The notes under the pieces: model-generated
The model's input: only the letters and a program-made list of their open reading frames with translations
Database searches by the model: none
What the model was told of the DNA's origin: nothing
Source: Bacteroidota bacterium
Lineage (GTDB): Bacteria; Bacteroidota; Ignavibacteria; Kapaibacteriales; UBA2268
DNA: 64,000 nt
Assembly (NCBI GenBank): GCA_004322215.1
Contig: SCSM01000024.1
Span: 42,729 to 106,728, forward strand
Direction: 5' to 3'
In this document: one piece after another, positions 53,786 to 55,197 of the stretch
How positions within the stretch are numbered: position 1 is the first letter of the stretch
How the letters are laid out: each line of letters opens with the position of its first letter
Translations under genes and position numbers: made by a program

Positions 53786-53909
53786 AAAACCCCACATTCA
53801 ACTTCACCGCCTCTTTCAATATCCTCAAATATTGTTCCTTTGGGATTTCCACTGCTCCGAGTGACTCGGTAAATTCATTAATAAATTGTGTGTCGGGAAG
53901 AATAAAACC
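53786..53909 (-). repeat. Displaced copy of the aat 3' end (partial pseudogene-like duplicate)
   Basis: Aligns without gaps to 54606-54729 (about 85% identity by hand count; near-identical over the distal 66 bp); still encodes GFILPDTQFINEFTESLGAVEIPKEQYLRILKEAVKLNVGF*. Confidence 0.9.
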
Positions 53910-53946
53910 TATTCGATTTGTTTGTTTAGAAATATAGATGATTAAG

Positions 53947-54132
53947 CTATGATGCCCTTGATTTATAAGAGTGTATTTTTTCCTGTTGCTCTAATAAATT
54001 TGTCCATTTAGCTTTTATTTCATCAAATTCTGATTGTTTAAAGTTCGGGTCTGTTCTTTGACGATACATAGCATCACGAATGTCTCGAACCATTTGGACA
54101 GCATCGAAATATTTTTCATTTTTATTTTTCAT
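53947..54132 (-). CDS. Small antitoxin-like partner of the PIN protein
   Basis: 61 aa MKNKNEKYFDAVQMVRDIRDAMYRQR...; overlaps the 3' end of the PIN-like gene by 11 nt. Confidence 0.65.
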   Translation of the reverse strand: MKNKNEKYFDAVQMVRDIRDAMYRQRTDPNFKQSEFDEIKAKWTNLLEQQEKIHSYKSRAS

Positions 54133-54573
54133 TTGTAATGTCCCTCGGACTTCTTATTTCCAAAATTTTATATCCATATTTTAAATTTATAGAATTATAT
54201 AACCTTATTTTATTGTAATTAACAATATGTTTGAAATTCCAACTTACAAGCAAAACAACTTGTTGAATAGTTGCTATTGCAATATGTTGAGTATCTGCAA
54301 AAGAAGACTCACCAACAATTTTTGCATTTAAGTAATAACTTGATAATTTTTCGGCTTCTTCAGTCAGTTTTACAACATTAAAATTTGATTGAGGAATTGT
54401 TAATAATATTTCTTTAATATGTTCAGGTGCGAATTTCAACTCGAATTCAGTAACTTCAGAAATTATAGCTTTATTTTTCCTATTACAAAATCATTAATAA
54501 GTATATTTGACCAAATTTCAAATTCAGGGTCATAACATCCTCCAAATACTGAAGTATCAACATATATTCTCAT
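54122..54573 (-). pseudogene. PIN-domain (VapC-like) toxin gene with a frameshift in a 5-A tract
   Basis: N-terminal MRIYVDTSVFGGCYDPEFEIWSNILINDFVIGK then -1 shift at about 54474-54478, continuing NKAIISEVTEFELKFAPEHI...LLVSWNFKHIVNYNKIRLYNSINLKYGYKILEIRSPRDI. Confidence 0.82.
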
Positions 54574-54603
54574 GTTTTTATCCTAAATTATATAAACCAA
54601 ATC

Positions 54604-55197
54604 TCAAAACCTCACAGGCAGTTTCACTGCAATCTTCAATATATTCAAATACTGTACCTTAGGTATTTCCACTGCTCCGAGTGACTCAGTAAATTCATTA
54701 ATAAATTGTGTGTCGAGAAGAATAAAACCATTTTCAATTAAATGTTCAGCTAAATGATAGAATGCGGCTTTCGAAGAGTTGCTGACTATTGAAAACATTG
54801 ACTCTCCGAAAAAAGCACCTCCAAGAACCACTCCATATAGTCCACCGACAAGCGAGCCTTCCTTGTAAGTTTCAACAGAATGTGCATAACCGAATGAGTG
54901 AAGAATTGTATATGAATCAATAATCTCCTGCGAAATCCATGTGTCATCTCGTTGACTGCACGCTTCTATTACCTGCCGGAATGTAGTGTCAATCCGAAAT
55001 TCAAATCCTTCTTTCTTTATTGATTGGCGGACAGAACGTGGCATTTTTATTCTATCAAGTGGAATGATTGCTCTCGGGTCGGGAGAATGCCAAAGAATAA
55101 CGCTCTCTTTGCTTTCTGCCATAGGAAAATACCCGCTTGCATAAGCATTCAGCAGGTATTGCGGCTCAATAATCGTTCTTTGTGTGTCTTCTCTCAT
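54604..55197 (-). CDS. aat: Leucyl/phenylalanyl-tRNA--protein transferase
   Basis: LLNAYASGYFPMAES, LWHSPDPRAIIPLDRIKMPRSVRQSIKK, LVGGLYGVVLGGAFFGESMFS, LLDTQFINEFTESLGAVEIP. Confidence 0.96.
   Translation of the reverse strand: MREDTQRTIIEPQYLLNAYASGYFPMAESKESVILWHSPDPRAIIPLDRIKMPRSVRQSIKKEGFEFRIDTTFRQVIEACSQRDDTWISQEIIDSYTILHSFGYAHSVETYKEGSLVGGLYGVVLGGAFFGESMFSIVSNSSKAAFYHLAEHLIENGFILLDTQFINEFTESLGAVEIPKVQYLNILKIAVKLPVRF

What the first reader, a model, noticed from the sequence alone, without database searches (positions are those of the whole stretch)
53786..54729. 3' end of aat is duplicated around a small PIN/antitoxin-like module: a mini-element that restores its target gene
Seen directly: 54606-54729 (the C-terminal coding end of the intact aat) aligns without gaps to 53786-53909, about 85% identical by hand count, with only two mismatches in the distal 66 bp (ACTGCTCCGAGTGACTC...GAAGAATAAAACC). 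The displaced copy still reads as a plausible Aat C-terminus (LPDTQFINEFTESLGAVEIPKEQYLRILKEAVKLNVGF*) and ends in a stop. Only a PIN-like toxin gene and its small partner lie between the copies. Many integrative elements enter at a gene's 3' end and bring a replacement end. Here that would mean the distal copy is the original end and the current aat carries an imported one. A TA-sized unit (about 0.8 kb) with no visible recombinase doing this would be unusual and may be a general dispersal mode for small modules.
Basis: partly seen in the sequence, partly recalled or inferred. Interest (0 to 1): 0.85.

Follow-up and report, generated by a model that had tools for sequence, protein, structure and literature searches.

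The report
Toxin-antitoxin modules displacing gene ends
In a little-known group of bacteria, small toxin-antitoxin gene pairs settle right behind ordinary genes, bring a spare copy of that gene's end, and push the old end downstream, so the gene stays intact and modules can pile up one after another.

Summary
The last 126 nt of aat (54604-54729) recur without gaps at 53784-53909, around a frameshifted PIN gene and a 61-aa partner gene. The copies are mosaic: 3 mismatches in the first 66 nt, 16 in the last 60 (p=8e-4). Relatives carry both tail types, so this is not one duplication that simply decayed. It is also not isolated. In the same bacterial family, gene tails recur behind toxin-antitoxin (TA) modules at eamA, gdpd, sdhB, gmhA and others, with PIN, RelE/YafQ and nucleotidyltransferase/HEPN modules: 9 of 60 gene ends upstream of a TA versus 0 of 107 other gene ends. 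Empty sites exist for eamA and gdpd in the window's own genome. At eamA the farthest tail in a relative keeps the native stop codon and downstream sequence, while inner tails carry leaders specific to the module that follows. Unrelated modules stack behind one gene, and at gdpd an orphan antitoxin was left behind. Best explanation: incoming DNA carrying a relative's gene tail plus a TA recombines in the gene's 3' end by homology. The native tail is displaced downstream, as proposed for T6SS and Rhs loci. At aat itself the direction is likely, not proven.

The parts
54604..55197 (-). aat, leucyl/phenylalanyl-tRNA-protein transferase, intact, 197 aa
   Evidence: Pfam PF03588 E 3.9e-64; NCBIfam TIGR00667 E 8.1e-56
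54604..54729 (-). proximal (active) aat 3' tail, 126 nt with stop TGA; probably arrived with the module
   Evidence: at the 19 sites that differ from the distal copy it agrees with G053 at 12 and G052 at 13
54574..54603 (-). leader between aat stop and PIN start
   Evidence: sequence
54122..54573 (-). PIN-domain (VapC-like) toxin gene, frameshifted near 54480, so probably a pseudogene
   Evidence: relatives match Pfam PIN weakly; matches to G022 PIN split at this point
53947..54132 (-). 61-aa partner (antitoxin-like) ORF, start overlaps PIN stop
   Evidence: homologues follow PIN genes in G052
53910..53946 (-). junction between module end and displaced aat tail
53784..53909 (-). distal (displaced, probably native) aat 3' tail, stop TAA
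   Evidence: agrees with G054 at 12 of the 19 differing sites
53728..53783 (-). spacer contiguous with the ompA upstream region; shares AATTAATAATTGC with the sequence after aat in G054
53663..53727 (-). upstream region of the PD40/OmpA gene, conserved in all four congeners
51893..53662 (-). PD40/OmpA-domain gene, the conserved downstream neighbour of aat in the genus

Best explanation
A TA module that lies behind a relative's copy of a gene enters as DNA made of that gene's 3' tail, a leader and the TA pair. The tail recombines by homology with the recipient's gene tail, so the gene receives a working imported end. The other side joins just behind the module, inside or near the recipient's own gene end. 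The native tail is displaced about 0.6-0.8 kb downstream as a remnant. Repeated events stack different TA modules, each followed by a gene-tail remnant. Shown: the duplication, its mosaic structure, recurrence at several genes and TA types, empty sites, native sequence behind the farthest eamA tail, module-specific leaders behind the inner tails, stacked unrelated modules, and different order of the same modules in two species. Inferred: homologous (RecA-type) recombination of incoming DNA with an illegitimate join at the far side, and TA addiction or selfishness as the reason these modules persist. At the window's aat the active tail would be the imported one and 53784-53909 the original.
For: Mosaic copies with an identity core: aat 3/66 versus 16/60 mismatches with two real alleles in relatives; gdpd in G053 has a 38-nt identical core with divergence on both sides; eamA in G054 has a nearly identical core of about 68 nt. 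Empty sites: eamA in G000:C37 and gdpd in G000:C41. In G052 the farthest eamA remnant keeps the native TGA and downstream flank of G000 (z=12.3), while the tails ahead of RelBE and ahead of MNT/HEPN share leaders only with the same module in G054 (z=6.8 and 5.6; all other pairs z<=4). Stacking: G052 eamA-MNT/HEPN-tail-RelBE-tail-native neighbour; G054 eamA-PIN-tail-RelBE-tail-decayed MNT. gdpd in G052: a DUF6883/DUF4926 pair sits upstream of an orphan antitoxin (49 of 60 positions identical to the G053 antitoxin) and a gdpd remnant. sdhB array in G015. Specificity: 9/60 versus 0/107 gene ends, p=6.6e-5.
Against: No empty aat site was found, and all four congeners carry different inserts between aat and the ompA-like gene. 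The body of aat in G000 groups with the same proteins as its proximal tail, so the distal tail could be the foreign one. Most TA modules (about 80-85%) show no remnant, and G053 eamA-RelBE has none. All genomes are draft assemblies and some arrays span contig ends: the G054 C36-C59 join rests on a 99-nt overlap with one mismatch. Three of the nine sites are T9SS-type secretion tails that exist as many paralogues. The gmhA copies are nearly uniform at about 95%, which fits a simple duplication equally well.
Confidence: 0.72

Rival explanations
1. Insertion with long target duplication: the module inserts into the gene end and copies about 60-150 bp of the same gene, as proposed for restriction-modification genes. 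Both tails are the recipient's own at first and then diverge.
For: Length and geometry fit (PMC3874152 and PMC3031569 describe about 100-bp variable duplications for restriction-modification units). gmhA (136 bp, 95%), eamA remnants and G000:C36 (57 bp, 93%) are compatible.
Against: It predicts uniform decay of the free copy. The aat copies show a sharp core/tail split and two alleles known from other species; gdpd shows an identical core between diverged sides.
Confidence: 0.15
2. Site-specific integration by a recombinase acting in trans, with the element carrying the replacement gene end, as for integrases that use protein-gene 3' ends.
For: The gene is restored and attachment-like identity cores are present.
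Against: No integrase was recognised near the module. The cores at aat, gdpd, eamA and sdhB show no common motif by eye. Unrelated TA types use the same site.
Confidence: 0.07
3. At aat only: the distal tail, not the proximal one, is foreign. A PIN module with a G054-like aat tail behind it came in downstream of an intact native aat.
For: The proximal tail matches the clade of the gene body. LNV in the distal tail is shared only with G054.
Against: The first 66 nt of the distal copy are nearly identical to G000's own aat, not to G054. The spacer behind it runs into the ompA upstream region. Where an empty site exists (eamA), the distal tail is native.
Confidence: 0.2

Closest known systems
Homology-facilitated displacement of effector 3' ends by effector-immunity modules (T6SS in Vibrio cholerae, PMC5361080; rhs C-terminal displacement, PMC2935791)
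   Same: A homologous anchor lies upstream, the far join is non-homologous, the old 3' end moves downstream, and arrays with orphan immunity genes build up. The displaced end, the arrays and an orphan antitoxin are seen here.
   Different: There the anchor gene is itself the toxin and its C-terminus is swapped for another. Here the anchors are housekeeping genes (aat, eamA, gdpd, sdhB, gmhA) whose end is restored with an equivalent one, and the cargo is intracellular TA modules of several types.
Insertion with long target duplication of restriction-modification genes (Nobusato et al. 2000; cited in PMC3874152, PMC3031569)
   Same: A small selfish module without its own recombinase, bracketed by about 100-bp direct repeats of target DNA.
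   Different: The cargo is TA, not restriction-modification. The repeats are gene 3' ends, mosaic between alleles at aat and gdpd, and stack into arrays.
Integrases that enter protein-gene 3' ends and bring a replacement end; integron cassette arrays
   Same: Gene end restored; cassettes stacked behind a fixed site.
   Different: No recombinase recognised, no common attachment site seen, and the separators are the host gene's own tails.

Membership tests
Homology-facilitated 3'-end displacement (T6SS/Rhs type) | Old 3' end of the anchor gene persists downstream of the new module | tested here: met
   aat, eamA, gdpd, sdhB, gmhA remnants
Homology-facilitated 3'-end displacement (T6SS/Rhs type) | Successive modules stack at one anchor; orphan immunity/antitoxin left behind | tested here: met
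   eamA arrays in G052 and G054; orphan antitoxin at gdpd in G052
Homology-facilitated 3'-end displacement (T6SS/Rhs type) | Anchor gene encodes a secreted toxin whose C-terminus is exchanged | tested here: not met
   Anchors are Aat, EamA transporter, GDPD, SdhB-type Fe-S protein, GmhA
Homology-facilitated 3'-end displacement (T6SS/Rhs type) | Recombination needs incoming DNA and RecA | not testable with these tools
   Needs transformation experiments
Insertion with long target duplication | About 100-bp direct target duplication around the insert, with an empty site in a relative | tested here: met
   Empty eamA and gdpd sites in G000; no empty site at aat
Insertion with long target duplication | The two copies derive from one target sequence | tested here: inconclusive
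   Not at aat or gdpd (mosaic alleles); possible at gmhA and G000:C36
Integrase-mediated integrative element | Recombinase encoded in the element | tested here: not met
   Only PIN and partner genes lie between the copies
Integrase-mediated integrative element | Common attachment core among insertion sites | tested here: inconclusive
   Cores of aat, gdpd, eamA and sdhB compared by eye only; no shared motif seen
Type II toxin-antitoxin (VapBC-like PIN) | PIN-domain toxin with small adjacent partner gene | tested here: met
   Relatives match PIN below the curated cut-off; small partner follows; no relative in the PDB by sequence
Type II toxin-antitoxin (VapBC-like PIN) | Toxicity neutralised by the partner | not testable with these tools
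   Window copy is frameshifted; test an intact relative

The most novel reading that the evidence does not exclude
TA modules in this group circulate as locus-specific cassettes, each carrying its own copy of a given housekeeping gene's 3' tail as a homology handle. They integrate by ordinary recombination behind that gene in related species and stack into integrase-free arrays.
Probability: 0.45. Interest if true: 0.85.

Novelty: new variant of a known kind. Interest (0 to 1): 0.72.

Why it matters
How small TA modules without recombinases spread between chromosomes is an open question. Displaced gene tails are a datable footprint of each arrival. They show which end is native, in what order modules came, and which modules travelled with a gene tail. 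The footprint can be searched in any set of related genomes, and the idea gives a simple mechanism (homology handle plus addiction) that can be tested in a transformable strain.

Tried and rejected
A search for further aat tails in the gaps of G052, G053 and G054 found none. Simple tandem duplication of aat with later decay was rejected for aat by the uneven mismatches and shared alleles. The integron-like idea for the G015 array was set aside because its separators encode the SdhB C-terminus plus a terminator. Short matches between PIN flanks that are dispersed repeats or AT-rich sequence (for example G011, G012, G028a, G033) were not counted as gene-tail cases. Sliding-window identity along eamA, gdpd and aat did not give clear recombination breakpoints upstream of the tails. 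Literature: no paper held both 'toxin-antitoxin' and 'homology-facilitated illegitimate recombination'; Furuta et al. 2010 (PMC2853133) is not held.

Full report
WHAT IS THERE. The window lies in G000:C34, a draft genome whose aat relatives are mostly Ignavibacteria/Kapabacteria-type MAGs. The repeat is real: 126 nt at the 3' end of aat (54604-54729) recur ungapped at 53784-53909, 820 bp away. Between them lie a PIN gene (54573-54122), frameshifted near 54480, and a 61-aa partner ORF (53947-54132). The downstream neighbour, a PD40/OmpA gene (51893-53662), is also the next conserved gene after aat in G052 and G053. In G054 the ompA-like gene lies on contigs C183 and C207, which share a 126-nt identical stretch at their ends. 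In all four congeners the aat-ompA gap holds different cargo: PIN here, a WD40 gene in G053, other ORFs in G052, and about 4.7 kb in G054.

MOSAIC COPIES. The two tails differ at 3 of the first 66 nt and 16 of the last 60 (p=8e-4). At the 19 differing sites G053 and G052 agree with the proximal copy at 12 and 13, and G054 agrees with the distal copy at 12. These are two alleles with a shared core, not one duplicated sequence that decayed evenly.

RECURRENCE. I scanned 58 PIN loci of the same family for direct repeats bracketing the module. Besides aat, the upstream gene's tail recurs right behind the partner gene at eamA (G054:C36), gdpd (G053:C2), a truncated clp-like gene (G001:C86), a T9SS-type tail (G028), an Rhs fragment (G033), and sdhB in G015. 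A scan not centred on PIN added RelE/YafQ modules at gmhA (G030) and at an unnamed gene of the window's own genome (G000:C36), plus a HEPN locus (G004). Counting one gene end at a time, 9 of 60 gene ends directly upstream of a TA toxin have a displaced tail, against 0 of 107 other gene ends in the same loci (p=6.6e-5). Three of the nine are T9SS-type tails with many paralogues and should be weighed less. A separate control on 144 non-PIN ORFs of similar size gave four hits, two of which were PIN genes of a second subfamily missed by the filter. In a phylum-wide sample similar brackets appear at a few more PIN loci.

EMPTY SITES AND DIRECTION. For eamA and gdpd the window's own genome has the empty site. 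In G052 the order is eamA, MNT/HEPN, tail, RelBE, tail, then the same convergent AbiEii/DUF6036-like gene that follows eamA in G000. The farthest tail has the native TGA and the native downstream sequence (z=12.3 against shuffles). The tail in front of RelBE and the tail in front of MNT/HEPN each share their leader with the tail in front of the same module in G054 (z=6.8 and 5.6), and no other pair exceeds z=4. So the native tail is the displaced one, and each inner tail is tied to the module behind it. The MNT module is first in G052 and third in G054, which vertical inheritance of one fixed array does not explain. The G054 order rests on joining contigs C36 and C59 by a 99-nt overlap with one mismatch. 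At gdpd, G053 has PIN/partner then a gdpd remnant; G052 has a DUF6883/DUF4926 pair, then an orphan partner gene (49 of 60 alignment positions, stop included, identical to the G053 one), then a gdpd remnant. The G052 gdpd array spans two contigs (C17, C100).

AT AAT. No empty aat site is held. The distal copy is followed by a spacer that runs into the ompA upstream region and shares AATTAATAATTGC with the sequence just after aat in G054, which suits a native distal tail. Against this, the body of aat in G000 groups with proteins whose tails are of the proximal type, and the LNV of the distal tail is shared only with G054. I hold the distal tail as native at about 0.7-0.75.

MECHANISM. The simplest account is homologous recombination of incoming DNA in the gene tail, with an illegitimate join just behind the module, as proposed for T6SS effector-immunity modules in Vibrio cholerae and for Rhs loci (PMC5361080; PMC2935791). 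Identity cores of 38-68 nt at gdpd, aat and eamA are of a length that RecA can use (established knowledge, not tested here). TA addiction would favour keeping whole modules (inference). Long target duplication, known for restriction-modification genes, remains possible for uniform copies such as gmhA. A site-specific recombinase is unlikely: none was recognised and no core motif is shared by eye.

NOVELTY. The geometry is known from toxin genes with exchangeable ends. Its use by several unrelated TA types at housekeeping genes, with the gene end restored and the tails stacked as a record of arrivals, appears to be a new variant; the full-text search found no paper joining the two subjects, though most subscription papers are not held.

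Noticed in passing
L181/L205/L206 (G015:C124, 33 kb) and L204 (G015:C19): Array of PIN/partner, DUF4160-DUF2442, PIN-like, and SLFN/UvrD-type helicase modules separated by copies of the sdhB 3' end plus a terminator hairpin; the intact sdhCAB operon is on C19.
   Followed up: partly
L174 (G052:C102:14000-24000): Three tandem PIN/partner modules, 782 and 745 bp apart, with a 99% identical 105-bp spacer and assembly gaps at the repeats.
   Followed up: partly
L306 (G101:C65), L316 (G207:C31): PIN/partner modules about 72% identical at DNA level to the window's module over about 600 bp, in other families of the class; homology starts at the PIN start codon.
   Followed up: no
window 55194-57413 and G053:C6: A WD40-repeat gene lies upstream of aat in G000, while a WD40-repeat gene (reverse) lies between aat and the ompA-like gene in G053.
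   Followed up: no
window 33900-34591: Two adjacent small ORFs whose ends are about 81% identical in protein: a local tandem duplication.
   Followed up: no
window 57609-59357: Caspase-domain protein with fascin/FRG1-like beta-trefoil repeats.
   Followed up: no
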